A stretch of 64,000 bases of DNA from the IMG/VR virus record IMGVR_UViG_3300027985_000412, positions 1 through 64,000 of that record. The stretch is one strand, 5' to 3'. This DNA comes from a virus. A program made the position numbers and the translations under genes. Below the pieces are notes generated by a model. That model was not told the DNA's origin and searched no databases. It was given only the letters and a program-made list of their open reading frames with translations. Shown here piece by piece: positions 51,600 to 64,000 of the stretch (position 1 is the stretch's first letter; each line of letters opens with the position of its first letter).

Positions 51600-52907
51600 T
51601 TAATTCTCCTTTAATTTTTTACTTTGTCTTTCCGCTTTATCACACTTCTTACAACGATTTGAGTACCCATCAGAAGCGCGGGCCTTACGAACGAAATTAT
51701 GGGTGTCGCGCAGTAGAAGTACCCCACATGTGTTGCAATTCTTGAAGTTTTCGGGAAAGGCTAGATTTTCAATTAGGAGAGCGTGATATTGAGCTGCTTC
51801 CGCAACCCTCATACAAATCTTTTGACGGAAGATTGTGGAGATATAGTTTGAGGTATATGTTTTGTTGAACTGTTTGTTGATGGAGTCTGCTATGTCTTGG
51901 TTTTTGACTCTCCTTTTCTTTAAGTTGAGGATTTGGATTTGAACTTCGTCGAGTTCGGCCATTTCCACATAAAAGTTTAGGGTTTTTAGAACGAAAGGGG
52001 TAGTGGTCTCAGGATCATCAAGAGAATCTTCTTCAAGTTCAAAGCAGTAAAGGAATAGATTGTAGATATGCTCTAAGTTGGTGAAGTCGAGAAGAGTCGC
52101 TGCGCCCGTGTGAGATTTTTGCTCATAATAAAACGAAGATATCTGTTTGACGGAATCTTCGTTGAAAGAGTCGTTTGTGACTTTCGAGAAGATACGCTGC
52201 GCCATCGGTGTATCATTAAAGAGACCGAGAGGTAGAACTGGAACTGTATCTTCGAAAGGTATGTGGTCGTTAAGAAAAACCGGAGCACGATACGGTGTTT
52301 TTGGTGTGATCTCGGTTACGTAGGAGTCACGGATTGTATATTGTTCACGACGCAATTCAACTAGAAGGTGGCGCATTTTATAGTAGGAATAGAGTTTTAG
52401 AGAGGCTGCTTTTTGTTTTGCGTTCTCGATTTGCTCGGGAGTAAAACGGTCAAGTAGGTCTTTTCTTGGGTCTTTCTTACGTTTATTGTGCGCGAGGTCA
52501 TAGAAATTTAGGACGAGTTCTAGTGCGTCAATCTGCTTCCATAAGTCGTGAAGTTCCGTAATATGTGAATTTTCTTCGCGAGAAAAAACCACTTTAGGAG
52601 TCCGGTAATGGGGTTGATTAGGGCCTTGGATTTGATTTTCCGAGAAAGTAGGGGACTCTAAGAGACCGTCAAGAGATTCAACAGGTTTCTTAGACCAAGT
52701 AGAGTAGCGAGTTTCGATTTCGATTTCTCCTCTGTCTACTACGTTTTCTCCGTCTATGTCTTTGCCGTAAAGCATATAGTTTGCGATTGTTTCGAGTTCC
52801 TTTTCGGTTAATTTACCTTCGGGAAAGTTTTCTTCCAGATAGTCTTCTACGAAGCGTTTGCGCCCATAGATATCTGGTATTGTAAAATCTAATTTAAGTC
52901 TATTCAT
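51600..52907 (-). CDS. HTH and zinc-ribbon protein, first gene of the structural operon
   Basis: A 435-residue protein read first from the leftward promoter. A helix-turn-helix-like stretch lies at about residues 330-360 (VKNQDIADSINKQFNKTYTSNYIS), and CNTC...CKKC near the C-terminus forms a zinc-binding pair. The rest is helical and acidic. It may recognise the packaging site or regulate late genes. Its place at the head of the packaging block slightly favours small-terminase or late-regulator roles. The ribosome-binding site (AGGTGA) is weak compared with other genes. Confidence 0.6.
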   Translation of the reverse strand: MNRLKLDFTIPDIYGRKRFVEDYLEENFPEGKLTEKELETIANYMLYGKDIDGENVVDRGEIEIETRYSTWSKKPVESLDGLLESPTFSENQIQGPNQPHYRTPKVVFSREENSHITELHDLWKQIDALELVLNFYDLAHNKRKKDPRKDLLDRFTPEQIENAKQKAASLKLYSYYKMRHLLVELRREQYTIRDSYVTEITPKTPYRAPVFLNDHIPFEDTVPVLPLGLFNDTPMAQRIFSKVTNDSFNEDSVKQISSFYYEQKSHTGAATLLDFTNLEHIYNLFLYCFELEEDSLDDPETTTPFVLKTLNFYVEMAELDEVQIQILNLKKRRVKNQDIADSINKQFNKTYTSNYISTIFRQKICMRVAEAAQYHALLIENLAFPENFKNCNTCGVLLLRDTHNFVRKARASDGYSNRCKKCDKAERQSKKLKEN

Positions 52908-54422: not shown

Positions 54423-54480
54423 TTAGACGTGGCACGTCTAAGGTTTTCCCCTTGACTATCTTATCACTATGTGATAAGAT
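54423..54480 (+). promoter_or_regulatory. palindrome 1 with promoter and second operator
   Basis: Palindrome 54423-54441, then TTGACT (54452-54457), 17 bp, TAAGAT (54475-54480). A perfect 13-3-13 palindrome (54455-54483; arms ACTATCTTATCAC / GTGATAAGATAGT) lies over the promoter from the -35 to just past the -10. It is unique in the array and looks like the operator of another repressor. Confidence 0.85.
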
Positions 54481-54510
54481 AGTACTATCAAGAGAGGGAG
54501 GAATACCAAA

Positions 54511-54684
54511 ATGGCAACAGTCAAAACTTCGAACCTTAAGGATTACACGCGTGAGGAAGCGTACGCGATGAGTCAGACCGTCGGCAAGGCGTGGGATGAG
54601 TTCATGGCTCGCGAAGCTGAGAAGGCTGAGGAAGCCTCAGCTGAGCCGGAACCCGACGCCGAAGAGGTGGAAGGGGACGAGTAG
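54511..54684 (+). CDS. small acidic protein of foreign composition
   Basis: A 57-residue protein with GGGAGG site. A helical first half (YTREEAYAMSQTVGKAWDEFM) is followed by an acidic, Glu/Ala/Pro-rich tail. Codons are markedly GC-rich compared with the phage, suggesting recent acquisition. It is expressed from the promoter that carries an additional 29-bp operator. No family is recognised. Confidence 0.65.
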   Translation: MATVKTSNLKDYTREEAYAMSQTVGKAWDEFMAREAEKAEEASAEPEPDAEEVEGDE

Positions 54685-54686
54685 GA

Positions 54687-54770
54687 ATGAAAGAGAAGCT
54701 GAAAGCTATAGTGCTGTTAGAGCTTGCTATACTTCTGCCACTCGCCTTCGTGATACACTTCTTCTTTTAG
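54687..54770 (+). CDS. 27-residue membrane peptide
   Basis: MKEKLKAIVLLELAILLPLA and a hydrophobic end in FFF: positively charged start followed by one transmembrane helix. It starts 2 nt after the preceding stop, so it is translated by coupling; no separate ribosome-binding site apart from GGAA. The stop lies in the stem of a 14-bp hairpin. Such short single-span peptides can act as toxins, channel modulators or lysis helpers, none shown here. Confidence 0.55.
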   Translation: MKEKLKAIVLLELAILLPLAFVIHFFF

Positions 54771-54791
54771 GGGATTTTCCCCTAAAAGAAG
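54761..54791 (+). terminator. 14-bp stop-codon hairpin
   Basis: Perfect stem CTTCTTTTAGGGGA / TCCCCTAAAAGAAG with TTT loop; the TAG stop of the membrane peptide is inside the left arm. It lacks a long T-tract downstream. Confidence 0.75.
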
Positions 54792-54793
54792 TC

Positions 54794-54850
54794 TTAGACG
54801 TAATACGTCTAAGATAATCACTTGTATTTTCTTATCGTTTGGGTTATAAT
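54794..54850 (+). promoter_or_regulatory. palindrome 2 with promoter
   Basis: Palindrome 54794-54812, gap 9, TTGTAT (54822-54827), 17 bp, TATAAT (54845-54850). Confidence 0.88.
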
Positions 54851-54880
54851 AATAATACAGTAAGGAAAGGAGTTGCACAA

Positions 54881-55039
54881 ATGAGAAGTTTAGTTCGTTG
54901 CTTGCGCGCTAAATCAGAGGATGAATTTTCAGAAGGTTTCAAAGTCATAGACAAATTTTTGTCGATAATTGGTTATGGAGCTATCACAGTATTTGTTCTC
55001 TATCTCGGCGTCCACGGTGTTTTTTACCTCCTTAAGTAA
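54881..55039 (+). CDS. small membrane protein
   Basis: A 52-residue protein with AAAGGAG site. A basic, cytosolic N-terminus (MRSLVRCLRAKSEDEF) precedes one transmembrane segment (IIGYGAITVFVLYLGVHGVFYLL) at the C-terminus. No family recognised. Confidence 0.65.
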   Translation: MRSLVRCLRAKSEDEFSEGFKVIDKFLSIIGYGAITVFVLYLGVHGVFYLLK

Positions 55040-55060
55040 AAACCAAACCTTTCTATCTGT

Positions 55061-55098
55061 TACGGACGGACTTGCCACCGTCCGTATTTTTATTTTAT
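55061..55098 (+). terminator. intrinsic terminator
   Basis: Stem ACGGACGG / CCGTCCGT (8 bp, 8-nt loop) followed by ATTTTTATTTT. Confidence 0.8.
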
Positions 55099-55100
55099 TC

Positions 55101-55157
55101 TTAGACGTACAACGTCTAGGAAAAAAGGTTGTTTTTTTTTGTCGAATCGCATATAAT
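55101..55157 (+). promoter_or_regulatory. palindrome 3 (one mismatch) with promoter
   Basis: TTAGACGT-ACA-ACGTCTAG (55101-55119), gap 9, TTGTTT (55129-55134), 17 bp, TATAAT (55152-55157). This is the only copy with an altered arm base and it drives a segment without an evident gene. Confidence 0.8.
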
Positions 55158-55163
55158 ACATAT

Positions 55164-55392
55164 ATAAGGTAACAAACATACATAAATAATATCCAATACA
55201 GTAGACAAAAACCAAAAGTAACGAATGTAACCAATGTAACAAGAATGTAAAAATGGAAAAGTATTCTGTCACATTATTTCCCATATTCTGACATCAGTGA
55301 AAGAGGGAGATTTGTCAGTGCAATAGAGAAAGGATACTTTGATTCTACCGATAGAAGTCAAAATGAGCTACGTTTTAAGAAATGAGCTACGA
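55164..55392 (+). ncRNA. transcribed segment with no evident gene, short direct repeats
   Basis: No reading frame with a ribosome-binding site is visible; the only ATG frames encode 12-13 residues. The segment contains three AATGTAA units (from 55224, 55233 and 55244), an inverted pair CTGACA / TGTCAG (55288 and 55313) and two exact copies of AAATGAGCTACG (55361-55372 and 55380-55391). It may be a regulatory RNA, a protein-binding site or a decayed gene. It lies behind an intact promoter. Confidence 0.4.
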
Positions 55393-55449
55393 TTAGACGT
55401 GTAACGTCTAAAAAAATTTCTTGACTTTTATTAATGTCAATGATATAAT
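55393..55449 (+). promoter_or_regulatory. palindrome 4 with promoter
   Basis: Palindrome 55393-55411, gap 9, TTGACT (55421-55426), 17 bp, TATAAT (55444-55449), then ATCAA and AAGGAAGGGG. Confidence 0.9.
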
Positions 55450-55479
55450 TATAACATCAAAAGGAAGGGGAATAAAACA

Positions 55480-55722
55480 ATGGCAAGAAGAGGATTAAAA
55501 ATTGATTTTATGCATAAAAGTATCGAAGTATCTCATGCATACTCATTGAGGGCATCCAAATTTAATAGTTTAGAATATATTGAATTAGGATGTATAAAAT
55601 TAGACTTTCCAGATTTTGAAGTTTATGTTCTTCCTAAACAAAAAAAGAAAAAGAAAAAGAAGAAACCTTCTGTAGATGAGGTTATCGCAAAGATTTTGGC
55701 AGAAAAGGAGAATACAATATAA
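55480..55722 (+). CDS. hypothetical protein with poly-lysine tract
   Basis: An 80-residue protein. An N-terminal strand-rich part is followed by nine residues of almost continuous lysine (QKKKKKKKKPS, about residues 53-62) and a short acidic helix. The lysine tract could bind nucleic acid or membrane. It overlaps the next gene as TAATG. Confidence 0.62.
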   Translation: MARRGLKIDFMHKSIEVSHAYSLRASKFNSLEYIELGCIKLDFPDFEVYVLPKQKKKKKKKKPSVDEVIAKILAEKENTI

Positions 55723-55925
55723 TGAAAGAATGGCAAGTTGTACTTTTGGGATCTTTAATTGCTTTAGGAACAGTTGCAGGATTATTCGGTCTTTGCTTCT
55801 TAATTCCCGAAGGAGTTGGGCGCGACTCAATGATGCGTTTAGTCTCTGGATTTAGTTTCCCAATCGGTCTTGGCGCATATGCATTGACAAAATGGATACA
55901 GTATAGAAAATCTTGTGACGATTAG
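55722..55925 (+). CDS. two-span membrane protein
   Basis: A 67-residue protein with two hydrophobic segments (VVLLGSLIALGTVAGLFGLCFLI and LVSGFSFPIGLGAYALTKW) and a short charged tail. It is translationally coupled to the preceding lysine-rich protein, suggesting they work together. The TAG stop lies in the loop of a 9-bp hairpin. Confidence 0.65.
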   Translation: MKEWQVVLLGSLIALGTVAGLFGLCFLIPEGVGRDSMMRLVSGFSFPIGLGAYALTKWIQYRKSCDD

Positions 55926-55933
55926 TCACAAGA
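55911..55933 (+). terminator. stop-codon hairpin
   Basis: TCTTGTGAC-GATTA-GTCACAAGA, perfect 9-bp stem; the TAG stop spans the end of the loop. No T-tract. Confidence 0.65.
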
Positions 55934-55939
55934 ATAGTG

Positions 55940-55995
55940 TTAGACGTATCACGTCTAAGAAAACTTCTTGACTTTTTTGTATTATATGGTATAAT
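55940..55995 (+). promoter_or_regulatory. palindrome 5 with promoter of the SpoVT gene
   Basis: Palindrome 55940-55958, gap 9, TTGACT (55968-55973), 16 bp, TATAAT (55990-55995), leader TATCAAGTGAAAGG. Confidence 0.9.
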
Positions 55996-56026
55996 AGTAT
56001 TATCAAGTGAAAGGAAATAAAAAGAA

Positions 56027-56572
56027 ATGAAAGCAACAGGAATAGTAAGAAGAATTGATGAACTCGGGCGCGTGGTCATTCCGAAGGAGATTCGCAGAAC
56101 ACTTCGGATAAGAGAAGGAGATCCTTTGGAAATCTATACCGACAGAGAAGGAGGAGTCATCTTCCGGAAGTATTCTCCAGTCGGTGAGTTGAACAATCTT
56201 GCTAAAGACATGGCAAGCACTCTTGCGTCAACCACAGATTTGATGATACTCGTCACCGATATGGATTCGATTCTCGCAACGTCAGGACGTGCGCGGCGTC
56301 TTGATGGGATGCCCCTCTCGCCCATCATGATCGAGATGATTCAAAAGAGATATCCGACATGTGCGGGCCGCGAAGGTTTTGAACAGATATTTAACGTTGA
56401 TACGTTAAGTGGTTTCCTCTCTCAATTCTACGTTCAACCCATCTTGGTTGATGGTCAGCCGGTTGGTGGATTATGGTTTCTCTCCACCAAAGAAGAAGGA
56501 GTGATTCCGGCAGAGGTCAAAGAAATTGCAAAATTCGCCGTTGCGTTTCTTGAGAAACAGTTGAACAATTAA
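56027..56572 (+). CDS. spoVT: SpoVT-like sporulation transcription factor
   Basis: A 181-residue protein, essentially the length of cellular SpoVT. The N-terminal AbrB-type DNA-binding domain (residues 1-50: MKATGIVRRIDELGRVVIPK, then a RREGDPLEI-like swapped-hairpin segment) is nearly the same as in Bacillus SpoVT as I remember it. The remainder (55-178) is a GAF-like domain, diverged (MILVTDMDSILATSG, VQPILVDGQPVGGLWFLS). In the host, SpoVT modulates forespore genes late in sporulation and germination. Codons are more GC-rich than in the neighbours, fitting acquisition from a host. It is controlled by the array promoter, so the phage makes it under its own regulation. Confidence 0.92.
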   Translation: MKATGIVRRIDELGRVVIPKEIRRTLRIREGDPLEIYTDREGGVIFRKYSPVGELNNLAKDMASTLASTTDLMILVTDMDSILATSGRARRLDGMPLSPIMIEMIQKRYPTCAGREGFEQIFNVDTLSGFLSQFYVQPILVDGQPVGGLWFLSTKEEGVIPAEVKEIAKFAVAFLEKQLNN

Positions 56573-56589
56573 GGGGATTAATTCCCCTT
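56571..56589 (+). terminator. hairpin after the SpoVT gene
   Basis: AAGGGGA-TTAAT-TCCCCTT, 7-bp stem starting within the TAA stop; no strong T-tract. Confidence 0.6.
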
Positions 56590-56595
56590 AGTAAG

Positions 56596-56652
56596 TTAGA
56601 CGTGTTACGTCTAATATTTTCTCTTGATATTTTTCTCGCAATCGGTTATAAT
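56596..56652 (+). promoter_or_regulatory. palindrome 6 with promoter
   Basis: Palindrome 56596-56614, gap 9, TTGATA (56624-56629), 17 bp, TATAAT (56647-56652), leader ACTATCAAGTAGAAAAGGAG. Confidence 0.9.
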
Positions 56653-56683
56653 AATACTATCAAGTAGAAAAGGAGTTAAAACA

Positions 56684-57178
56684 ATGTCAGTCATGCACTC
56701 GATTAGCAATTGCAAGAAGATGTTAAATCATGGAATTGACCGCGCGGTGTATTACTCTCCAAAGTATGATATGATTATCAAGAAGGAAAAGCCCGGCGGT
56801 GGAGAAAGTGGAAAAGGTTGTGAAGCTCAATTCATGTATGAAAAGTCTTTTTATGAACAGCTTAGACCTGCGGAACGTATTTTCTTTCCAGTTATTGACT
56901 TTTGCGCCTACAAAGGGAGAACCGTTTGTCTTATGCATCGTTGCACCTGCTTAACTGACTTACCACAATATCAAGAGCTTAACAGCGCATTATCATTCGG
57001 CGGTTGGCGTTATTGGACAGTATCAGAATTAAGACTTATCTTTCTTACTTTGGGATTGAATACTCGTTTTGTTAAATACTTCCATAATGTCATCACTCGC
57101 TTTGGACTTCATGACTTACATCTTGGAAATCTTGGAGTTTATAATAACCATTTGGTAATTCTTGACGCGGGATTTTAA
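56684..57178 (+). CDS. miniature protein-kinase-like protein, copy 1
   Basis: A 164-residue protein with kinase landmarks in order: a short Gly-containing strand, IIK with K33 (beta-3 lysine), a possible alpha-C glutamate (E53 or E58), a catalytic-loop-like H143-D-L-H-L-G-N149 and VILD161-A-G. The final motif takes the place of DFG, and the protein ends at once, so the whole C-lobe after it is missing. It is about 60 percent of the size of a kinase domain and related to the next gene. Start 56684 follows AAAAGGAG. It might phosphorylate host proteins, bind nucleotides or be a pseudokinase. Confidence 0.6.
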   Translation: MSVMHSISNCKKMLNHGIDRAVYYSPKYDMIIKKEKPGGGESGKGCEAQFMYEKSFYEQLRPAERIFFPVIDFCAYKGRTVCLMHRCTCLTDLPQYQELNSALSFGGWRYWTVSELRLIFLTLGLNTRFVKYFHNVITRFGLHDLHLGNLGVYNNHLVILDAGF

Positions 57179-57184
57179 TCCCGC
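57167..57184 (+). terminator. stop-codon hairpin
   Basis: GCGGGATT-TT-AATCCCGC, 8-bp palindromic stem with the TAA stop inside it. No T-tract. Confidence 0.6.
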
Positions 57185-57194
57185 AGTCATAGAG

Positions 57195-57251
57195 TTAGAC
57201 GTATAACGTCTAAAAAAAAATATTGACTTTTACCAATTAATTGGATATAAT
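57195..57251 (+). promoter_or_regulatory. palindrome 7 with promoter
   Basis: Palindrome 57195-57213, gap 9, TTGACT (57223-57228), 17 bp, TATAAT (57246-57251), leader ACTATCAAGTGAAAGGGGAG. Confidence 0.9.
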
Positions 57252-57279
57252 AATACTATCAAGTGAAAGGGGAGAGATA

Positions 57280-57762
57280 ATGTCATTAATCCAATCAATT
57301 CCAAAGTTTAGAAAGAAACTTGGATACGGAATCTCAAGAGAAGCGTTTTACTCTAGAAAATATCAATGTGTAATTAAACGCTCTAGGCCGGATGGTTGTG
57401 GACATCGTCCAATTCGTTCCCAGATGTTAGCAGAGATTAACCTCTTTGAACGTATGGAAGAATCTGAAAGAGAATTCTTTCCAGTTATTGAAGTTCTTGA
57501 ATACAAAGAGGAAAAATTGATTGCTATGCATCTAATTAAACCAATCTCTTCTAATAAAGATTGGGAACAACTTTTCAATTCTTTGTGGAGATTGCAAACA
57601 GAAGAAAAGTATAACACTTTGTGCGCTCAAATTGGTCTTGACTGTTCATATAATAAGGCTTTTTGGACATTTGTTCGTAAATATCATATTGATGATTTAC
57701 ACACTGCAAATGTTGGCGTTTATAATAATCATCTTGCGATTATCGATGCCGGATTAAATTAA
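57280..57762 (+). CDS. miniature protein-kinase-like protein, copy 2
   Basis: A 160-residue paralogue of the preceding gene. Shared features: MS-x-x-x-SI start, G-I-x-R-x-x-(F/Y)-YS, VIK with K33, FFPVI, a catalytic-loop-like D138-D-L-H-T-A-N144 and IID156-A-G. E52 in AEINLFERM is a good alpha-C glutamate. As in copy 1 the sequence ends just after the DFG-like motif. The two copies have separate palindrome-promoters, so they arose by duplication of the whole cassette and have diverged greatly since. Confidence 0.6.
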   Translation: MSLIQSIPKFRKKLGYGISREAFYSRKYQCVIKRSRPDGCGHRPIRSQMLAEINLFERMEESEREFFPVIEVLEYKEEKLIAMHLIKPISSNKDWEQLFNSLWRLQTEEKYNTLCAQIGLDCSYNKAFWTFVRKYHIDDLHTANVGVYNNHLAIIDAGLN

Positions 57763-57775
57763 TCCGGTCTTTTTT
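57749..57775 (+). terminator. intrinsic terminator containing the stop codon
   Basis: CCGGATTAA-A-TTAATCCGG followed by TCTTTTTT; the TAA stop is in the hairpin. Confidence 0.82.
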
Positions 57776-57777
57776 AA

Positions 57778-57834
57778 TTAGACGTTGAACGTCTAAGATT
57801 GTCTATTGCATTTTCTATTCTCATATAGTATAAT
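57778..57834 (+). promoter_or_regulatory. palindrome 8 with promoter
   Basis: Palindrome 57778-57796, gap 9, TTGCAT (57806-57811), 17 bp, TATAAT (57829-57834), leader GTATCAAAAGGAGG. Confidence 0.9.
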
Positions 57835-57860
57835 AAGAGTATCAAAAGGAGGGTAAAAAG

Positions 57861-58148
57861 ATGATTTGGTTTAATGGAGAAATTACACCATTGGCACCGA
57901 CGTTAGTTATTGGAAAGATTCATTCTGTATCTGGTCAAAAAGAAGTTGTCTGTCGTTGGAATGGCTCAGATTTTGTGCGCGCTGGTCAAGAACTATTTGT
58001 GATTGAATGGCGTCCGTTCTCAATGGACAATGATAGTCTGTTTGCCTTCTGCTTACAGCTCATAGCAGAAAAGCACTCGCCCAATCTTTCAACAGAAAAA
58101 AGAATGGACGCGGCGTATAAATTAATGGAGGACTTGGTAATCGAATGA
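57861..58148 (+). CDS. hypothetical protein
   Basis: A 95-residue protein with AAAGGAGG site. The first half is beta-strand rich (TLVIGKIHSVSGQKEVVCRW, QELFVIEWRPF) and the second helical. The small-barrel-then-helix plan is compatible with a nucleic-acid or protein binder; no family recognised. Its TGA stop is inside a 9-bp hairpin. Confidence 0.65.
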   Translation: MIWFNGEITPLAPTLVIGKIHSVSGQKEVVCRWNGSDFVRAGQELFVIEWRPFSMDNDSLFAFCLQLIAEKHSPNLSTEKRMDAAYKLMEDLVIE

Positions 58149-58155
58149 TTACCAA
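58134..58155 (+). terminator. stop-codon hairpin
   Basis: TTGGTAATC-GAAT-GATTACCAA, perfect 9-bp stem containing the TGA stop. No T-tract. Confidence 0.65.
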
Positions 58156-58161
58156 ACCATA

Positions 58162-58217
58162 TTAGACGTTATACGTCTAATTATAACTATTGACTTTCAT
58201 TATAGATGTGTTATAAT
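58162..58217 (+). promoter_or_regulatory. palindrome 9 with promoter
   Basis: Palindrome 58162-58180, gap 9, TTGACT (58190-58195), 16 bp, TATAAT (58212-58217), leader ATATCAAATGAAGGGAG. Confidence 0.9.
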
Positions 58218-58246
58218 AAGAATATCAAATGAAGGGAGTACAGAAA

Positions 58247-58519
58247 ATGTACGTTAAAGTTGAAACAGATTGTGCCTTTGCAGGATGCAATGAAAAACAT
58301 TTGGTCGAAGTACCGGATGACATGAGCGAAGAGGAACTCAATGCAATGGTGAATGAGTATGTGCAAGCTGACATTACTCCGGAAGGTAGCTATGAGATTC
58401 TTACCGAAGAAGAAGCAGAAGAGCTTGCAGAAGATGGTTATGAATGTGAATCTTATGGTTTCGAAGTCGAACCGGATTCTGACCCGAATGAAGTTCCAGG
58501 CACAGGGGATGAGGATTAA
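58247..58519 (+). CDS. very acidic small protein
   Basis: A 90-residue protein in which about one third of residues are Asp or Glu. The pattern VKVETDCAFAGCNEKHLVEVPDDMSEEEL resembles a small phage family with a CxxxGC-type start, but I cannot name it firmly. The tail (YGFEVEPDSDPNEVPGTGDED) is disordered and acidic. The ATG at 58247 is chosen because AAGGGAG precedes it; the in-frame ATG at 58229 overlaps that site. DNA mimicry is one hypothesis. Confidence 0.65.
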   Translation: MYVKVETDCAFAGCNEKHLVEVPDDMSEEELNAMVNEYVQADITPEGSYEILTEEEAEELAEDGYECESYGFEVEPDSDPNEVPGTGDED

Positions 58520-58530
58520 TCATCCCCTTT
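58504..58530 (+). terminator. stop-codon hairpin
   Basis: GGGGATGA-GGATTAA-TCATCCCC then TTT; the TAA stop lies at the end of the loop. Confidence 0.7.
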
Positions 58531-58535
58531 CCTAA

Positions 58536-58592
58536 TTAGACGTAATACGTCTAAGATATTCACTTGCATTTTATATCTATCTATAGTATAAT
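58536..58592 (+). promoter_or_regulatory. palindrome 10 with promoter
   Basis: Palindrome 58536-58554, gap 9, TTGCAT (58564-58569), 17 bp, TATAAT (58587-58592), leader TTATCAAGGAAGGGAG. Confidence 0.9.
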
Positions 58593-58619
58593 ACTATTAT
58601 CAAGGAAGGGAGAAAAACA

Positions 58620-59018
58620 ATGAAAAAGATTTGTGATACTTATATTGACTTGGAGGCAGGAGTCTTTAACAAGAATGGTAGATTACTCTATGTTATTAAA
58701 GCGCATGTGAGTGAGAAGCTAAAGTATTGTGACGAAAGAGATGTTGACCTGATGAATGACTTCAAAGCACTTGACAAAGCTATCCAAAAATGTTACAATG
58801 GTTTCTCTGTATTCTCTGATAGCGTCTTTTCGGCGGATGGATGTGGATTCAGCTCTTATTCTGGAGTAAGTAAACGTCATTCAGTTAAGATTATTGGTTT
58901 GCGCTCTATTGCAAAACAAAACACAACTTTCTCAATGCAAGATATAATGCAAAGAATGTGTTATCTTGATATAACAGAATACGCCAAAGATAATGCGATA
59001 GCATTATTTAACAAATAG
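58620..59018 (+). CDS. hypothetical protein
   Basis: A 132-residue protein with AGGGAG site, first of two genes in this cassette. It is mixed alpha/beta with a serine-rich middle (FSVFSDSVFSADGCGFSSYSG). No family is recognised. Confidence 0.62.
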   Translation: MKKICDTYIDLEAGVFNKNGRLLYVIKAHVSEKLKYCDERDVDLMNDFKALDKAIQKCYNGFSVFSDSVFSADGCGFSSYSGVSKRHSVKIIGLRSIAKQNTTFSMQDIMQRMCYLDITEYAKDNAIALFNK

Positions 59019-59026
59019 GAGGGAAT

Positions 59027-59263
59027 ATGAAACTCTATATTGTTTGGGAAGATAATCATGGTGACGTTTCGTGGTGGACAGAAAAACATCTTGCTATCCG
59101 AGAAATGAGACGCATTATAAAATATGGATGGTGCAAGAGAGAACGCGCGCAGATTATCAAAGAGTATCGCGAAGAAAATCCAAAAAAGAGATTCCGTTGG
59201 TGGGAAGCGTTTAGCGATTGCGTTGGTTATCGCGAAGTGGAACTAAATAAAAGTTGGAATTAA
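59027..59263 (+). CDS. small basic Trp-rich protein
   Basis: A 78-residue protein with AGGAGGG site, 8 nt after the previous gene. It starts with MKLYIVWEDNHGDVSWW and is basic in the middle (RIIKYGWCKRERAQIIKEYR), with six Trp in total. No family recognised. The TAA stop is in the loop of a 9-bp hairpin. Confidence 0.62.
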   Translation: MKLYIVWEDNHGDVSWWTEKHLAIREMRRIIKYGWCKRERAQIIKEYREENPKKRFRWWEAFSDCVGYREVELNKSWN

Positions 59264-59272
59264 TCCAACTTT
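59250..59272 (+). terminator. stop-codon hairpin
   Basis: AAAGTTGGA-ATTAA-TCCAACTTT, perfect 9-bp stem with the TAA stop in the loop; followed by C. Confidence 0.68.
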
Positions 59273-59277
59273 CATAC

Positions 59278-59334
59278 TTAGACGTTTGACGTCTAACAAT
59301 CAAAATTGACTTTTTAATTAATTTGTGTTATAGT
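59278..59334 (+). promoter_or_regulatory. palindrome 11 with promoter
   Basis: Palindrome 59278-59296, gap 9, TTGACT (59306-59311), 17 bp, TATAGT (59329-59334). Confidence 0.88.
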
Positions 59335-59362
59335 AATAATAGAAAATGAAAGGGGAAAGAAA

Positions 59363-59542
59363 ATGGTTAATTTAACAAAGAGAAAGAAAACTCCGGTTGA
59401 GCAGATTAGAAATGAGGTTGCCAAACTGGGCGGTTCAAGCGTCCTTTCGGACACTTCCTTGCTAACAATAGTTGGGGGACTTGAGAAAACTTATCCTGTG
59501 GTGATTGAGTTTGGCTCGAAATATGCCCTCGAAGAGGTGTGA
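59363..59542 (+). CDS. small hypothetical protein
   Basis: A 59-residue protein with AAAGGGGAAAG site. It begins MVNLTKRKKTPVEQIRNEVA (basic helix), followed by a Gly-rich turn and strands (LLTIVGGLEK, PVVIEFGSKYALEEV). No family recognised. Its TGA stop is exactly the first triplet of the loop of a 9-bp hairpin. Its cassette structure is complete. Confidence 0.65.
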   Translation: MVNLTKRKKTPVEQIRNEVAKLGGSSVLSDTSLLTIVGGLEKTYPVVIEFGSKYALEEV

Positions 59543-59553
59543 GCCACCTCTTC
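59531..59553 (+). terminator. stop-codon hairpin
   Basis: GAAGAGGTG-TGAGC-CACCTCTTC: perfect 9-bp stem with the TGA stop in the loop. No T-tract. Confidence 0.7.
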
Positions 59554-59558
59554 CCTAG

Positions 59559-59615
59559 TTAGACGTTCAACGTCTAAGTTTTCTCCTTGACTTTTATTAT
59601 TAATTATAGTATACT
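59559..59615 (+). promoter_or_regulatory. palindrome 12 with promoter
   Basis: Palindrome 59559-59577, gap 9, TTGACT (59587-59592), 17 bp, TATACT (59610-59615). Confidence 0.9.
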
Positions 59616-59642
59616 AATAATAATGAAAGGGAGGGTTATAAA

Positions 59643-59849
59643 ATGAAAAAGTTTATTGCAAGAAATTTTCCCTGTGTGATTGCAGGACTTCTCACCTTAG
59701 TTCTAACTGCCGCATTTATGGCGATAGCATCCTTAATCACAGCCTGCTCTGATGGAGCTATTGGTATCATCTGCTTTAGTGCTGCGTTCGCTTGTACAAT
59801 TCCCGCGTATACATGGATGGAAAGAATCTCCAAGAAATATTACTCTTAA
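59643..59849 (+). CDS. two-span membrane protein
   Basis: A 68-residue protein with AAAGGGAGGG site. A basic start (MKKFIARNF) is followed by two transmembrane segments (VIAGLLTLVLTAAFMAIASLI and IGIICFSAAFACTIPAY) and a basic tail (MERISKKYYS), implying both ends are cytosolic. No family recognised. Confidence 0.66.
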   Translation: MKKFIARNFPCVIAGLLTLVLTAAFMAIASLITACSDGAIGIICFSAAFACTIPAYTWMERISKKYYS

Positions 59850-59866
59850 CGTACCATAGGTACGTT
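59848..59866 (+). terminator. hairpin overlapping the stop codon
   Basis: AACGTACC-ATA-GGTACGTT, 8-bp stem beginning inside the TAA stop; no T-tract. Confidence 0.62.
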
Positions 59867-59870
59867 ATAG

Positions 59871-59927
59871 TTAGACGTATTACGTCTAAGAAAATCTCTT
59901 GACGTTCTTTTTCTTGTATGATATACT
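59871..59927 (+). promoter_or_regulatory. palindrome 13 with promoter
   Basis: Palindrome 59871-59889, gap 9, TTGACG (59899-59904), 17 bp, TATACT (59922-59927). Confidence 0.9.
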
Positions 59928-59956
59928 AAGTACATAAAGTGAAGGGAGTACAAAAC

Positions 59957-60421
59957 ATGAACACAAAAACAATCTACTTTGATATGGACGGAACAATCGC
60001 AAATTTGTATGGTGTAAGAAATTGGTTGCCGCGTTTGCGGTCAGAGGATGCTACACCATATCTGGAAGCTGAACCCATGTGCGATATGGTAAGAGTTATT
60101 GAATTGCTTGAAGCTCTCTGCGCTCAAGGGTATCGAATCGGGATTATAAGCTGGCTATCTATGGGAGCTTCAAAAGCCTATAAGAAAGAAGTCACGCGCA
60201 ACAAAAAGCGATGGCTCAACCAAGAAATGCCAATCGAATTTGACGAGATGCATTTCATACAATATGGTACACCCAAACACCGCGTTGCGCGGGATAAATT
60301 CGGAATCATCATTGATGACAGCTCCGAAGTGAGGGCTGGATGGGAAAAGCGTAATAACCGCATAGCGGTTGACCCGGCAGAAATGCCAATAGAAAATTTC
60401 CTCCTTTCCCTTCTATCTTGA
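59957..60421 (+). CDS. HAD-family phosphatase, nucleotidase-like
   Basis: A 154-residue HAD hydrolase. Motif I is FDMDGTIANL (nucleophile D9, acid D11). Motif II serine is in IISWLS, the motif III lysine is probably one of KKEVTRNKK, and motif IV is GIIIDDSSEV. Small phage HAD enzymes of this size are often 5'-deoxynucleotidases or polynucleotide phosphatases. The start at 59957 follows AAGGGAG; the in-frame ATG at 59939 overlaps that site. Likely cytosolic nucleotide or RNA/DNA-end metabolism. Confidence 0.78.
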   Translation: MNTKTIYFDMDGTIANLYGVRNWLPRLRSEDATPYLEAEPMCDMVRVIELLEALCAQGYRIGIISWLSMGASKAYKKEVTRNKKRWLNQEMPIEFDEMHFIQYGTPKHRVARDKFGIIIDDSSEVRAGWEKRNNRIAVDPAEMPIENFLLSLLS

Positions 60422-60428
60422 TAGAGGT

Positions 60429-60451
60429 CGAGTGGCAATAATTGTCACTCG
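60429..60451 (+). terminator. hairpin after the HAD gene
   Basis: CGAGTGGCAA-TAA-TTGTCACTCG, 10-bp stem with one G:U pair, 7 nt after the stop. Confidence 0.62.
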
Positions 60452-60461
60452 GCTTCTAGGA

Positions 60462-60518
60462 TTAGACGTCATACGTCTAACTATTTCTGTTGACACTATT
60501 AATAGGGTATGATATAAT
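60462..60518 (+). promoter_or_regulatory. palindrome 14 with promoter
   Basis: Palindrome 60462-60480, gap 9, TTGACA (60490-60495), 17 bp, TATAAT (60513-60518): the best promoter of the array. Confidence 0.92.
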
Positions 60519-60546
60519 AAAGACAATAAAAGAAAGGAAAACTAAA

Positions 60547-60819
60547 ATGAAAGCGAGGAATATTATGGGTAGTTATCGAGTAAAGAGAGGATACAGTAAC
60601 GCGGCAGTTGGTCTTGGATGTTTGGGAATCATTATGTTGGTTCTTCTGATGTGCGCTGTATCTGCTTTCTTGGGCGGACTGATCGTCTATCTTCTGTGGA
60701 ACGCACTTGTTCCGGTTCTGTTTGGCGGTGTCGTCATAACATACTGGACTGCGGTTCTTATCGGTCTTGCTCTTGGATTCATCGGCAGTATTTTCACGGT
60801 TCGAGTAAAGGGGAGTTGA
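60547..60819 (+). CDS. membrane protein
   Basis: A 90-residue protein with AAAGGAAAA site; an in-frame ATG at 60490 lies in the promoter and is rejected. A basic N-terminus (MKARNIMGSYRVKRGY) is followed by two or three transmembrane segments separated by short Gly-rich turns. No family recognised. Confidence 0.65.
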   Translation: MKARNIMGSYRVKRGYSNAAVGLGCLGIIMLVLLMCAVSAFLGGLIVYLLWNALVPVLFGGVVITYWTAVLIGLALGFIGSIFTVRVKGS

Positions 60820-60830
60820 TTCCCCTTTCT
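60807..60830 (+). terminator. stop-codon hairpin
   Basis: AAAGGGGA-GTTGAT-TCCCCTTT, 8-bp stem with the TGA stop in the loop, followed by CTTAG. Confidence 0.7.
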
Positions 60831-60833
60831 TAG

Positions 60834-60889
60834 TTAGACGTAGCACGTCTAATCTTTCTTCTTGACTTTTATTATTATTGTGATATAAT
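60834..60889 (+). promoter_or_regulatory. palindrome 15 with promoter
   Basis: Palindrome 60834-60852, gap 9, TTGACT (60862-60867), 16 bp, TATAAT (60884-60889). Confidence 0.9.
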
Positions 60890-60918
60890 AAAGATAATAA
60901 AAGAAAGGGGAAAACAAA

Positions 60919-61329
60919 ATGTTCACAGGTATTTTAGTAGGTATCGGTATCTCTCAGTTAATCTGTTTCTTGGTTTTCGTGCTTACTCATGAGGATGAGA
61001 TGAAGGCAATGCTTGCAGGCGGAGGAATCTTTCTGTTGCCTGTTAAATGGCTCTTTATGCTAATGAGAGCTATTTGGAAAGCATATGTTAATCACACATA
61101 TACTGTCTATAAGGTCTGCGGCGTCAACGAAAACTTTTGGAATCAGTATGTCAGATTGAAAAAGAAATGGTTTGACAATTACTACCACGAAGGAGAAAAT
61201 GATTACTATATCGAGGAGTATTTGGAACCGAAAAACAAACCACATAATTATGACCCTTTACGGAAACTTCCCGGCAATGGATGGTGGAATCAGGAATGGG
61301 TTAATAAGAATCTATTAAAAGAGTCGTGA
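60919..61329 (+). CDS. membrane-anchored protein
   Basis: A 136-residue protein with AAAGGGGAAA site. Two hydrophobic segments at residues about 3-23 and 33-50 are followed by an 85-residue soluble, Trp/Tyr/Asn-rich domain (NENFWNQYVRLKKKWFDNYY, GNGWWNQEWVNKN). No family recognised. Confidence 0.65.
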   Translation: MFTGILVGIGISQLICFLVFVLTHEDEMKAMLAGGGIFLLPVKWLFMLMRAIWKAYVNHTYTVYKVCGVNENFWNQYVRLKKKWFDNYYHEGENDYYIEEYLEPKNKPHNYDPLRKLPGNGWWNQEWVNKNLLKES

Positions 61330-61340
61330 GACTCTTTTTT
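61317..61340 (+). terminator. intrinsic terminator containing the stop codon
   Basis: AAAAGAGTC-GTGA-GACTCTTTT plus TT; the TGA stop lies in the loop. Confidence 0.85.
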
Positions 61341-61342
61341 AG

Positions 61343-61398
61343 TTAGACGTAATACGTCTAAGAAAAAGTCTTGACTTCTATGCTCAATATGTTATAAT
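61343..61398 (+). promoter_or_regulatory. palindrome 16 with promoter
   Basis: Palindrome 61343-61361, gap 9, TTGACT (61371-61376), 16 bp, TATAAT (61393-61398). Confidence 0.9.
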
Positions 61399-61405
61399 GA
61401 TATTG

Positions 61406-61425
61406 TGGTTGAGGGAAATCAACCA
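61406..61425 (+). promoter_or_regulatory. 5'-leader hairpin
   Basis: TGGTTGA-GGGAAA-TCAACCA at the predicted transcript start of the winged-helix-like gene, separated by 15 nt from its AGGAGG site. This is the only accessory cassette in which a leader hairpin was noticed. Confidence 0.6.
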
Positions 61426-61451
61426 ACAAAAAAAAATTAGGAGGCCTTACG

Positions 61452-61820
61452 ATGGCAGACAAGAAAATGACACAGAGGGAATTTTTTACAGCGGTGAAGG
61501 AAGCAAATCTTTCCAAGGAAATGACAGATTTTGCCGAAGCGGCAATTGCGGCTCTCGATAAGAGGAACGCGGCAAGACAGGCACAGCCGAGCAAAAAGGA
61601 AGTCGAGAACGAACCGATCAAAGCGGCTCTCGCGGCAATCGTCACGGGCGCAGGAAAAGCCATGATTGCAAAGGATATCACAGCGGCATACAACGCGGCG
61701 AACGCGGATGCCCAGATTACCACGCAGAAAGTTTCTGCTCTCCTGCATCAGCTTGTGGACGCTGGCACGCTCAAGAAGGGCGAACCTGTCAAAAAGACGC
61801 TGACCTATATCGGCGCATAG
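61452..61820 (+). CDS. winged-helix-like protein
   Basis: A 122-residue, Ala/Lys-rich protein with a clear AGGAGG site. The N-terminal half is a helical region with a charged linker (RQAQPSKKEVENEP). The C-terminal half (TAAYNAANADAQITTQKVSALL, then LVDAGTLKKGEPVKKTLTYIG) has the helix-helix-recognition-helix plus beta-wing arrangement of small DNA-binding proteins. GC-rich codons set it apart from its neighbours. It is the best visible in-array candidate for a DNA-binding regulator, but nothing links it directly to the palindrome. Confidence 0.65.
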   Translation: MADKKMTQREFFTAVKEANLSKEMTDFAEAAIAALDKRNAARQAQPSKKEVENEPIKAALAAIVTGAGKAMIAKDITAAYNAANADAQITTQKVSALLHQLVDAGTLKKGEPVKKTLTYIGA

Positions 61821-61822
61821 TG

Positions 61823-61848
61823 AAAGGGGATTTATCCCCTTTTTTTAG
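61823..61848 (+). terminator. intrinsic terminator
   Basis: AAAGGGGA-TTTA-TCCCCTTTTTTT, 2 nt after the stop. Confidence 0.88.
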
Positions 61849-61905
61849 TTAGACGTTATACGTCTAATAATTAGTATTGACTTCTCTTATCTAATATGTT
61901 ATAGT
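61849..61905 (+). promoter_or_regulatory. palindrome 17 with promoter of the structured RNA
   Basis: Palindrome 61849-61867, gap 9, TTGACT (61877-61882), 17 bp, TATAGT (61900-61905). Confidence 0.9.
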
Positions 61906-61911
61906 TATATT

Positions 61912-62212
61912 GTCGAGAGGGAAAAGAGTACGGTGCGCAACGTATCCACATTGGCCGTGTGGCCTTCCGAATAGGTTATCCCCATGTGCCGAATAAGACT
62001 GAGGGCGGTTCGATACCGTTACTGGCTAACGGATGGTGAGTTCAACCGATGAAACCTATGGGCCGAAGAGTTATGCGCCCCGCAGAATGCAAGGCTCCGC
62101 GTTAGACGCTAAGTGACTTAGCCTTGGAATACGAAAAGGCAACCTCCGAGAGGGAGCCAGGAGGAATAGGCTCCAGCTATATAAGGTATCTCCATTTGAG
62201 ATACCTTATTTA
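61912..62212 (+). ncRNA. structured non-coding RNA of unknown family, about 300 nt
   Basis: A promoter at 61877-61905 and a terminator hairpin at 62183-62207 delimit a segment with no credible gene. Visible helices: GGTGCG (61932) with TGCGCC (62074); CCACA/TGTGG (61946/61958); ATAGGTT (61971) with AACCTAT (62053), a 7-bp long-range helix; CGGTT/AACCG (62006/62044) enclosing CCGTTA/TAACGG (62016/62027); GCCTT/AAGGC (62121/62136); GGAGCC/GGCTCC (62153/62169). CGG-TTCGATA-CCG at 62006-62018 has a tRNA T-loop-like sequence that competes with one helix. GC content is clearly higher than in neighbours. I cannot assign a known class. It is not tmRNA, RNase P or 6S by motif. A raiA-like or other large Firmicute RNA should be tested. 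Confidence 0.8.
62183..62212 (+). terminator. terminator of the structured RNA
   Basis: AAGGTATCTC-CATTT-GAGATACCTT, perfect 10-bp stem, followed by ATTTACTT. Confidence 0.8.
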
Positions 62213-62213
62213 C

Positions 62214-62270
62214 TTAGACGTGATACGTCTAAGATTCTCTCTTTACAATCTCTTAACATTATGTTATACT
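62214..62270 (+). promoter_or_regulatory. palindrome 18 with promoter
   Basis: Palindrome 62214-62232, gap 9, TTTACA (62242-62247), 17 bp, TATACT (62265-62270). Confidence 0.88.
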
Positions 62271-62299
62271 ATCTATAATGAAAGAAGGAGGAAAAGGGA

Positions 62300-62773
62300 A
62301 TGGAAAATATTTGGATTTTTATAGTCGCTCAATTAATCAATGTTGTGTTAGGAACAATGCGATCGGTACTGACAATTCGTTCCAGTCAAAATGTGGCAGC
62401 TATCATTAATGCTGTGAGCTTCACCTTTTATGCAGGTGTTGTTAAGATGATAACTGGTCAAGAAATGTGGCTCGTTTTAGTAGTAACATTTATTACCAAT
62501 ATCATCGGCGTTTATGTTGCTATGTGGATTGTGAAGAAATTTAGTAAAGACAAGATATGGAAAATCACAATTACGACAGAGTTTGAAGATGTTAAAGATT
62601 GGATTTGTGAAGGATTGGAAAAATATAATCTTGGTTATTCTTCAATCGAAATTGAATCGGGTTATGTGATTGATGCATATTCATACACGCAAAACGAAAG
62701 TTTATTGATTAAGGAAGTAATTTCCAAACATAAAGTAAAATACTTCGTTACTGAAATGAATAAGACTTTATAA
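62300..62773 (+). CDS. UPF0316/DUF5698-like membrane protein
   Basis: A 157-residue protein. Three hydrophobic segments fill the first 80 residues (IFIVAQLINVVLGTMRSVLTI, IINAVSFTFYAGVVKMI, MWLVLVVTFITNIIGVYVAMWI). A cytosolic alpha/beta domain follows, with helix-strand units typical of DUF2179-like tails. The arrangement and the early LGTMRSVLTIRSSQ motif match the UPF0316 family (YebE type) of Firmicutes, whose function is unknown. Ribosome-binding site AAGGAGG. The TAA stop lies in a hairpin. Confidence 0.68.
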   Translation: MENIWIFIVAQLINVVLGTMRSVLTIRSSQNVAAIINAVSFTFYAGVVKMITGQEMWLVLVVTFITNIIGVYVAMWIVKKFSKDKIWKITITTEFEDVKDWICEGLEKYNLGYSSIEIESGYVIDAYSYTQNESLLIKEVISKHKVKYFVTEMNKTL

Positions 62774-62779
62774 GTCTTA
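62761..62779 (+). terminator. stop-codon hairpin
   Basis: TAAGACTT-TAT-AAGTCTTA, 8-bp stem; the TAA stop spans loop and right arm; no strong T-tract. Confidence 0.62.
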
Positions 62780-62793
62780 TTCAATTTCAATTA

Positions 62794-62850
62794 TTAGACG
62801 TAGTACGTCTAAGAAAATAATTTGACTTTTTAAAATTTTTCTGATATAAT
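62794..62850 (+). promoter_or_regulatory. palindrome 19 with promoter
   Basis: Palindrome 62794-62812, gap 9, TTGACT (62822-62827), 17 bp, TATAAT (62845-62850). Confidence 0.92.
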
Positions 62851-62880
62851 AAATTTAGAAAGTGAAGAAAGGAGAAAAAA

Positions 62881-63249
62881 ATGGCAGTTTCCAAAAAGTC
62901 CCTCAACGAAAAATTCAAAATGAAGGTGTTGGAAATGGTTTCCAATTTCCTCAAGGATGAAGGTGAGGATATTGTCCGCACAAAAAGCGGTGAAATTGCT
63001 TTTCCTTTTGTGAATGAAGCAGGGGATGATGAATGGATGAAAATTACATTTAGTGTACCTGCTGGCTCGCGTGATGGTGAACCGTTCGACGGTTACGGCG
63101 AAGCTGAAAGCTATGCAATGAGTATAGCAAGCAAAAAGGAAAAAGCGGCCACAGCGGCGGCGGCTAAGGAAAAGAAAATCCTTAAAGACACACAACAAAG
63201 AGCCAAGAAAGCGGAGAATCTGCGGAAGGCTCAAGAGGGTGGGGAGTAA
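62881..63249 (+). CDS. conserved-looking phage protein of unknown function
   Basis: A 122-residue protein with AAAGGAG site. Residues 1-80 are compact (EDIVRTKSGEIAFPFVNEAGDD, ITFSVPAGSRDGEPFDGYGEA). Residues 85-122 form a highly charged Ala/Lys/Glu helix. I have the impression that similar proteins occur in phages of gut Clostridia, but cannot name a family. The TAA stop lies in the loop of a GC-rich terminator hairpin. Confidence 0.65.
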   Translation: MAVSKKSLNEKFKMKVLEMVSNFLKDEGEDIVRTKSGEIAFPFVNEAGDDEWMKITFSVPAGSRDGEPFDGYGEAESYAMSIASKKEKAATAAAAKEKKILKDTQQRAKKAENLRKAQEGGE

Positions 63250-63267
63250 TCCCCATCCTTTTTTTTA
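63238..63267 (+). terminator. intrinsic terminator containing the stop codon
   Basis: GGTGGGGA-GTAA-TCCCCATCC (one bulge) followed by eight or more T; the TAA stop is the loop. Confidence 0.85.
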
Positions 63268-63324
63268 TTAGACGTGATACGTCTAAGAAAAAGCGTTGAC
63301 TTCCTTTATATTGTATGTTATACT
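63268..63324 (+). promoter_or_regulatory. palindrome 20 with promoter
   Basis: Palindrome 63268-63286, gap 9, TTGACT (63296-63301), 17 bp, TATACT (63319-63324), leader CTATCAAATGAAGGG. Confidence 0.92.
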
Positions 63325-63353: not shown

Positions 63354-64000
63354 ATGGATAAACGAAAAAACTATTATTTGGTACTTGATACCGAAACGGC
63401 GAACGGTCTGGATGACCCATTGGTTTATGATTGCGGTTTTGCAGTCGTGGATAAAAAAGGCAATGTGTATGAGACACATAGCTATATTATCTATGAGATT
63501 TACCGCGGAGAGCGTGAGCTGATGCAATCGGCGTACTATGCGGCAAAAATTCCCATGTATGAGGAACAAATCGCGGCAGGGCTGAGAAAAATTGTCAAAT
63601 ATATTACGCTTCGTAAAATCATTCGTGAAGTATGCGAACGCTGGAATATTAAGGCAATCATCGCCCACAATATGAGCTTTGACTATCGAGCTACCAGTAA
63701 AACCCAGCGATTTCTCACGAGTTCAAAGTACAGGTATTTCTTTCCATATGGTATTCCTGTGTGGTGTACTAAGTGTATGGCACAAGATACCATAGCTAAG
63801 CAAAAGTCATATATTGCCTATTGCGAAGAAAGAGGATATATGTATAATGGACGCCCGCGAGTGACAGCAGAAATCCTCTTCCGATATTTGTCAGGACAGC
63901 ATGATTTTGAGGAAGAGCATACAGGGCTTGCCGATGTGCTGATTGAAAAGGTAATTTTTACCCAGTGTATGAGACAGCACAAACCTATGAGGAAATCTCC
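63354..64000 (+). CDS. DEDDh 3'-5' exonuclease (DnaQ-like), cut by the window end
   Basis: An open frame of 215 codons without stop before the edge. DEDDh landmarks are visible: LD12TE14T near the N-terminus, IIAHNMSFD110 and HTGLAD (H189, D194). The last matches H-x4-D, so all four acidic ligands and the His appear present. Such enzymes proofread or trim 3' ends; this one may support the phage DnaE polymerase, which has only a PHP domain. It starts behind AAGGGAA and belongs to cassette 20. The C-terminus is missing from the window. Confidence 0.85.
   Translation, partial: MDKRKNYYLVLDTETANGLDDPLVYDCGFAVVDKKGNVYETHSYIIYEIYRGERELMQSAYYAAKIPMYEEQIAAGLRKIVKYITLRKIIREVCERWNIKAIIAHNMSFDYRATSKTQRFLTSSKYRYFFPYGIPVWCTKCMAQDTIAKQKSYIAYCEERGYMYNGRPRVTAEILFRYLSGQHDFEEEHTGLADVLIEKVIFTQCMRQHKPMRKS

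What the first reader, a model, noticed from the sequence alone, without database searches (positions are those of the whole stretch)
56027..56572. Phage-encoded full-length SpoVT
The AbrB domain is nearly identical to cellular SpoVT while the GAF-like sensor domain has diverged. SpoVT acts in forespore gene control and germination. Under phage control it could delay sporulation, alter spore traits or allow the phage to ride in spores. A kept DNA-binding domain with a changed sensor suggests the same targets but uncoupling from the host signal.
Basis: partly seen in the sequence, partly recalled or inferred. Interest (0 to 1): 0.78.

Follow-up and report, generated by a model that had tools for sequence, protein, structure and literature searches.

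The report
Phage SpoVT-like regulator in promoter array
A phage carries a complete but strongly altered copy of the bacterial spore regulator SpoVT, switched on from a phage promoter with a DNA tag that stands before nearly every small accessory gene in that region, so it looks like one of many early infection tools rather than a copied sporulation switch.

Summary
56027-56572 encodes a 181-aa protein with an AbrB DNA-binding head (six mostly conservative differences from the cellular consensus in the first 55 residues) and a GAF-type SpoVT_C domain. In a sample of 131 cellular SpoVTs, none has a sensor domain this divergent. It is a clear SpoVT-family protein but falls below the NCBIfam 'spore_V_T' equivalog cut-off, and no cellular relative found exceeds about 51% identity. 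Phage-borne spoVT homologues were already catalogued (Schwartz 2023), so the kind is known.

The forespore reading is not supported. The gene has a strong sigma-A-type promoter with no strict sigma-G-like site, inside an array of small genes. Almost every gene there has its own promoter 9 nt downstream of the same palindrome, TTAGACGT-NNN-ACGTCTAA (25 copies in the record; hundreds in about 36 related phage contigs). Promoter distances cluster at 7-10, 18-20, 28-30 and 39-41 nt, one helical turn apart, which suggests a phage activator. Only two of these phages carry a full SpoVT; several carry AbrB heads with other tails. Best reading: an early, operator-controlled AbrB/GAF regulator aimed at host promoters and probably uncoupled from the host signal. 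A sporulation effect is possible but untested. The shared operator regulon is the more novel finding.

The parts
55940..55958 (+). Palindromic operator TTAGACGT-ATC-ACGTCTAA in front of the spoVT-like gene
   Evidence: 19 exact copies plus one with a single mismatch in the window, 0 expected by chance; 25 in the record
55968..55995 (+). Sigma-A-type promoter, TTGACT-16-TATAAT with TG before the -10, starting 9 nt after the operator
   Evidence: 11 of 12 matches; fixed spacing across the array
56027..56572 (+). SpoVT-like regulator, 181 aa: AbrB head (1-51) and SpoVT_C/GAF sensor (54-179)
54423..63286 (+). Array of 20 operator-promoter units inside the window (25 up to 65875 of the 67,309-base record), mostly one gene per unit
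56684..57178 (+). Neighbouring array gene, 164 aa from ATG 56684; kinase-like HDLHLGN...ILDAG motif (own reading); phrog_4301
57280..57762 (+). Tandem paralogue of the previous gene, 160 aa from ATG 57280
   Evidence: (family D7)
61452..61820 (+). Winged-helix-like 122-aa protein; candidate (unproven) factor for the operator
   Evidence: A homologue lies in 29 of 33 contigs with at least 5 operators; predicted winged helix, weak PDB matches to winged-helix regulators; but only 10 of 44 loci of the variant-operator class

Best explanation
The gene encodes a SpoVT-family transcription factor that the phage uses as one of about 25 or more small, individually promoted early or accessory genes. Shown: its domain architecture, the intact AbrB head, the extreme sensor divergence, and its place in an array where nearly every gene has the same 19-bp palindrome upstream of a sigma-A-type promoter. 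Inferred: a phage-borne activator bound at the palindrome contacts RNA polymerase and switches on the cassette early in infection; the protein then forms an AbrB-type multimer, binds AbrB/SpoVT-like sites on the host chromosome and shifts transition-state or developmental gene expression, with a sensor that no longer answers the host ligand. Sporulation would be affected only if the host is a spore former.
For: Full-length SpoVT architecture and fold. Head nearly identical to the cellular consensus and all positions invariant in 26 aligned proteins kept. Sensor outside the range of 131 cellular copies. Own operator and strong promoter. Promoter distances in the lineage cluster at 7-10, 18-20, 28-30 and 39-41 nt, with 291 strong promoters against 23 in shuffles, as expected of a factor touching polymerase from one face of the helix. 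Operator absent from 391 Clostridia genomes and from six other phage records, so it is lineage-specific. A second phage of the lineage carries a full SpoVT-like gene and a 65-aa AbrB-head gene; at least three more, and phages with a variant operator, carry AbrB heads with unrelated tails. The head is what is kept; the tail is exchanged.
Against: No DNA-binding, expression or infection data. The host is unknown. AbrB-type heads bind with low sequence preference (general knowledge) and no SpoVT consensus is known (PMC5061766), so host targets cannot be predicted. A role on phage promoters is not excluded. The activator reading of the operator rests on spacing alone.
Confidence: 0.45

Rival explanations
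1. Sporulation hijack, the first reader's view: the protein replaces or competes with host SpoVT in sporulating cells to delay sporulation, change spores or let the phage enter them.
For: Full SpoVT architecture. Phage-carried spoVT homologues are enriched in phages of spore formers (PMC10294663), and that paper cites phage sigF/sigG homologues cutting B. subtilis spore yield by up to 99%.
Against: Promoter is sigma-A-like with no strict sigma-G-like site; the gene lies in an early-type array; it is below the SpoVT equivalog cut-off; no prophage of the lineage found; host not known to sporulate.
Confidence: 0.25
2. Phage-internal regulator: it binds phage promoters or the shared palindrome and tunes the phage's own genes.
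For: It lies inside the array and has the operator upstream; the only other lineage member found with a full SpoVT_C domain also has a 25-operator array.
Against: SpoVT_C is over cut-off in only 2 of 39 lineage or terminase-related records, and PF04014 is absent from five operator-bearing records of 122-139 kb, so it cannot be the general operator factor. The other full-length carriers L003 and L012 have no such operator.
Confidence: 0.17
3. Dominant-negative partner: the phage head joins host SpoVT or AbrB into mixed multimers and blocks them, the sensor being largely irrelevant.
For: The head is kept while the tail varies or is lost, including a 65-aa AbrB-head gene in the related phage.
Against: The sensor is still a complete predicted GAF fold, which a pure poison subunit would not need.
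Confidence: 0.08
4. Cellular contamination or a freshly captured host gene with no phage role.
For: Homologues are very common in Clostridia (263 of 391 genomes).
Against: It sits inside the phage array with a lineage-specific operator, no cellular relative exceeds about 51% identity, and a second phage has the same arrangement.
Confidence: 0.02

Closest known systems
B. subtilis SpoVT (PDB 2w1t; NCBIfam TIGR02851)
   Same: AbrB head plus GAF-type C-terminal domain over the full length, same predicted fold, head 86% identical
   Different: Sensor 21.5% identical to B. subtilis; below the equivalog cut-off (164.7 against 235.9 bits); phage sigma-A-type promoter instead of the sigma-G control reported for B. 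subtilis (PMC5061766)
Phage-carried spoVT homologues (K04769) in gut and other viromes (Schwartz 2023, PMC10294663)
   Same: A SpoVT homologue on a phage genome
   Different: That catalogue names the KO only; here the full domain structure, sensor divergence, promoter and operator context are described, and most relatives found in IMG/VR are AbrB heads without SpoVT_C
SPbeta repeated element SPBRE and its repressor MrpR (PMC10516654)
   Same: One repeated operator in many promoter regions of a large phage with a related terminase (Sundance annotation YonF)
   Different: Operator sequences were not compared; here the spacing suggests an activator; no MrpR-like protein was looked for, and the binding protein is unknown
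ESAS elements of mycobacteriophage cluster K (PMC11373665)
   Same: Repeated inverted repeat joined to a SigA-like promoter before single genes
   Different: ESAS repeats are imperfect, 7 copies in Adephagia; here the palindrome is near-perfect, 25 copies, with helix-phased distances across a lineage

Membership tests
SpoVT family (AbrB + SpoVT_C) | N-terminal AbrB/MazE-type DNA-binding domain | tested here: met
   PF04014 43.9 bits, cut-off 24.7
SpoVT family (AbrB + SpoVT_C) | C-terminal SpoVT_C/GAF domain | tested here: met
   PF15714 60.8 bits, cut-off 27.5; fold match to 2w1t and 2w1r
SpoVT orthologue (TIGR02851 equivalog) | Score above the curated cut-off | tested here: not met
   164.7 bits against 235.9, although residues 2-179 align to model 1-179
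SpoVT orthologue (TIGR02851 equivalog) | Forespore (sigma-G) expression | tested here: inconclusive
   No strict sigma-G-like site upstream and a strong sigma-A-type promoter; only 11 of 79 cellular spoVT genes score with the same pattern
SpoVT orthologue (TIGR02851 equivalog) | Required for normal sporulation or germination | not testable with these tools
   Needs expression and complementation
SPbeta SPBRE/MrpR-type regulon | Repeated operator bound by a tyrosine-recombinase-fold repressor | not tested
   Repeated operator present; the binding protein was not identified
MazE-type antitoxin of a toxin-antitoxin pair | Adjacent toxin gene | tested here: inconclusive
   No toxin family hit for the neighbours scanned (55480-55722, 56624-57178, 57241-57762); 55722-55925 was not scanned; each neighbouring cassette has its own promoter

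The most novel reading that the evidence does not exclude
This SpoVT-like gene is one of a set of AbrB-head cassettes with exchangeable tails carried in a phage regulon not found in the papers searched: a near-perfect 19-bp palindrome at helix-phased distances upstream of sigma-A promoters, mostly one gene per unit, shared by tens of large phages and present elsewhere as a symmetric variant (TTAGATGT-NNN-ACATCTAA), served by a still unidentified phage activator.
Probability: 0.5. Interest if true: 0.68.

Novelty: new variant of a known kind. Interest (0 to 1): 0.5.

Why it matters
Phage-carried sporulation regulators are known mostly as catalogue entries, apart from phage sigma factors tested in B. 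subtilis. A full SpoVT with an intact head and an extremely changed sensor makes it directly testable whether phages keep host DNA targeting while dropping host signals. Its promoter context argues against assuming a forespore role from the gene name. The shared operator offers a simple handle to define the accessory regulon of a widespread group of uncultured phages and to find the factor that reads it.

Tried and rejected
Palindrome as transcription terminator: rejected as the main role, because strong downstream promoters sit at fixed, helix-phased distances. Palindrome as a host operator: absent from 391 Clostridia genomes. SpoVT as the general factor for the palindrome: rejected, too rare in the lineage. 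Single viral SpoVT clade: not rejected but not shown; long branches, p-AU 0.20. GenBank 'Bacteriophage sp.' MT83xxxx records with full SpoVT: several look like cellular contigs (larger genes on both strands) and were not counted as phage evidence. Viral scans with the neighbour kinase-like protein and the DNA polymerase found nothing, and the sensor-only alignment was too diverse to scan. Host by prophage search: none at E 1e-60. Rfam: no hit. Literature search for the operator sequence: only unrelated papers among those listed. GC3 of the gene is high for the record but ordinary within the array (z 0.73), so it gives no evidence of recent transfer. The winged-helix protein as operator factor: possible, but weak in the variant class (10 of 44).

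Full report
What is there. The ORF 56027-56572 (+) is real and exactly where stated. It encodes 181 residues with an AbrB/MazE-type head (7-51) and a SpoVT_C domain (54-179), both above Pfam cut-offs. The closest solved protein is B. subtilis SpoVT over residues 1-179. A predicted structure (pLDDT 84.3, pTM 0.78) has SpoVT 2w1t as its best match in the PDB. It covers the NCBIfam SpoVT model end to end but scores 164.7 against a cut-off of 235.9 bits, so it is a SpoVT-family protein and not, by that test, a SpoVT equivalog. It lies in a 67,309-base IMG/VR virus record with helicase, primase, DNA polymerase, anaerobic ribonucleotide reductase, terminase, portal and tail genes.

Head and sensor. 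Six of the first 55 residues differ from the cellular consensus, mostly conservatively, and every position that is invariant in a 26-protein alignment is kept. The sensor has a median identity of 25.6% to 131 cellular SpoVTs; the most divergent cellular copy has 33.5% against the same set. The first set of cells was query-biased, so 20 lower-ranked copies were added. The literature gives 20-30% identity for the C-terminal domain across homologues, with no known ligand and no consensus binding site (PMC5061766), so the direction is typical of the family and the degree is extreme in my sample. No cellular relative found exceeds about 51% identity. Trees place the gene on a long branch with no reliable partner: it paired with the very long branch of L017 (95/92), and with that row left out it had none; one viral clade is neither shown nor rejected (p-AU 0.20).

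Promoter context. The gene has a strong sigma-A-type promoter (TTGACT-16-TATAAT, 55968-55995) and, ending 9 nt before it, the palindrome TTAGACGT-ATC-ACGTCTAA. The same palindrome occurs 20 times in the window (19 exact, one with a single mismatch), all between 54423 and 63286, with none expected, and 25 times in the record. Most units hold one gene, a few two, and for a few no gene was called. No strict sigma-G-like site was found, though that test is weak.

The array in other phages. An exact scan of IMG/VR gave 60 stretches in about 36 contigs. Those checked share terminase, portal, polymerase and other genes with this phage. Among 439 unique sites, strong promoters lie at 7-10, 18-20, 28-30 and 39-41 nt from the palindrome (291 against 23 in shuffles), about one helical turn apart. 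This spacing is what a protein contacting polymerase from one face of the DNA would give, and argues against a terminator. The palindrome is absent from 391 Clostridia genomes, from five phages with related terminases and from Moorella phage MTATph1. A symmetric variant, TTAGATGT-NNN-ACATCTAA, occurs in 103 further stretches, again mostly 9 nt from the promoter.

AbrB genes in the arrays. In the TTAGACGT lineage a full SpoVT_C domain over cut-off was found only here and in contig IMGVR_UViG_3300038673_000438 (2 of 39 records). That contig also has a 65-aa AbrB-head gene ending soon after the linker, and three others carry AbrB heads with a different tail. For the full-length gene of that contig and for the three others the upstream sequence printed shows the operator-promoter unit. 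For the 65-aa gene the 149 bases printed upstream show no palindrome and no clear promoter unit; the nearest operator in that listing lies downstream of its start, so its control is unclear. In the variant class, L081 has an AbrB gene directly behind a variant operator, and other heads with varied tails occur; their promoters were not examined. PF04014 is absent from five operator-bearing records of 122-139 kb, so AbrB proteins are not the general operator factor. A winged-helix-like protein (61452-61820) has a homologue in 29 of 33 contigs with at least 5 operators, but in only 10 of 44 variant loci, so it is a candidate only.

Interpretation. I take the protein to be an operator-controlled, probably early, AbrB/GAF regulator aimed at host promoters, with a sensor likely uncoupled from the host signal. 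Early timing and host targets are inferences. Sporulation hijack stays open: phage-carried spoVT homologues are catalogued as enriched in phages of spore formers (PMC10294663). Against it stand the promoter type, the array context, the missing prophage evidence and the unknown host.

Limits. Virus records are often fragments; scans used exact patterns; the operator factor, the host and the infection timing are unknown; nothing here measures binding or expression.

Noticed in passing
window 54423-63286 (record to 65875): 20 copies (25 in the record) of TTAGACGT-NNN-ACGTCTAA, each upstream of a sigma-A-type promoter, mostly one gene per unit; shared by about 36 related IMG/VR contigs with helix-phased promoter distances.
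   Followed up: yes
L081 and L343-L422: Symmetric variant operator TTAGATGT-NNN-ACATCTAA in 103 IMG/VR stretches with the same 9-nt promoter spacing.
   Followed up: partly
window 56684-57178 and 57280-57762: Tandem paralogues with a kinase-like HDLHxxN...ID/LDAG motif (own reading), distant phrog_4301 members; true starts are probably ATG 56684 and 57280, not the listed TTG starts.
   Followed up: partly
window 61452-61820: Predicted winged-helix protein found in 29 of 33 operator-rich contigs, often in several copies; possible operator factor or nucleoid protein.
   Followed up: partly
window 63354-64000, continuing to 64142 in L287: 262-aa protein conserved in 28 of 35 lineage contigs, with a DEDD-exonuclease-like start (LVLDTETA, own reading).
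   Followed up: no
window 51600-52907 (-): 435-aa protein at the head of the late genes, phrog_5767 'sigma factor' match plus a C-terminal cysteine cluster; in 24 of 35 lineage contigs.
   Followed up: no
L286 (G001 contig, about 17000-17194, minus strand): 65-aa AbrB-head gene that looks like a SpoVT cut off after the SPVGDL linker, in a phage that also has a full copy; the 149 bases printed upstream show no operator or clear promoter unit, unlike the full copy.
   Followed up: partly
L162-L169, L171 (GenBank MT83xxxx): 'Bacteriophage sp.' faecal scaffolds with full-length SpoVT; several have gene layouts that look cellular, so database counts of phage SpoVT may be inflated.
   Followed up: partly
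L017-L019: AbrB head fused to a shortened C-terminal domain of about 105 residues with no SpoVT_C match, in three IMG/VR contigs.
   Followed up: no
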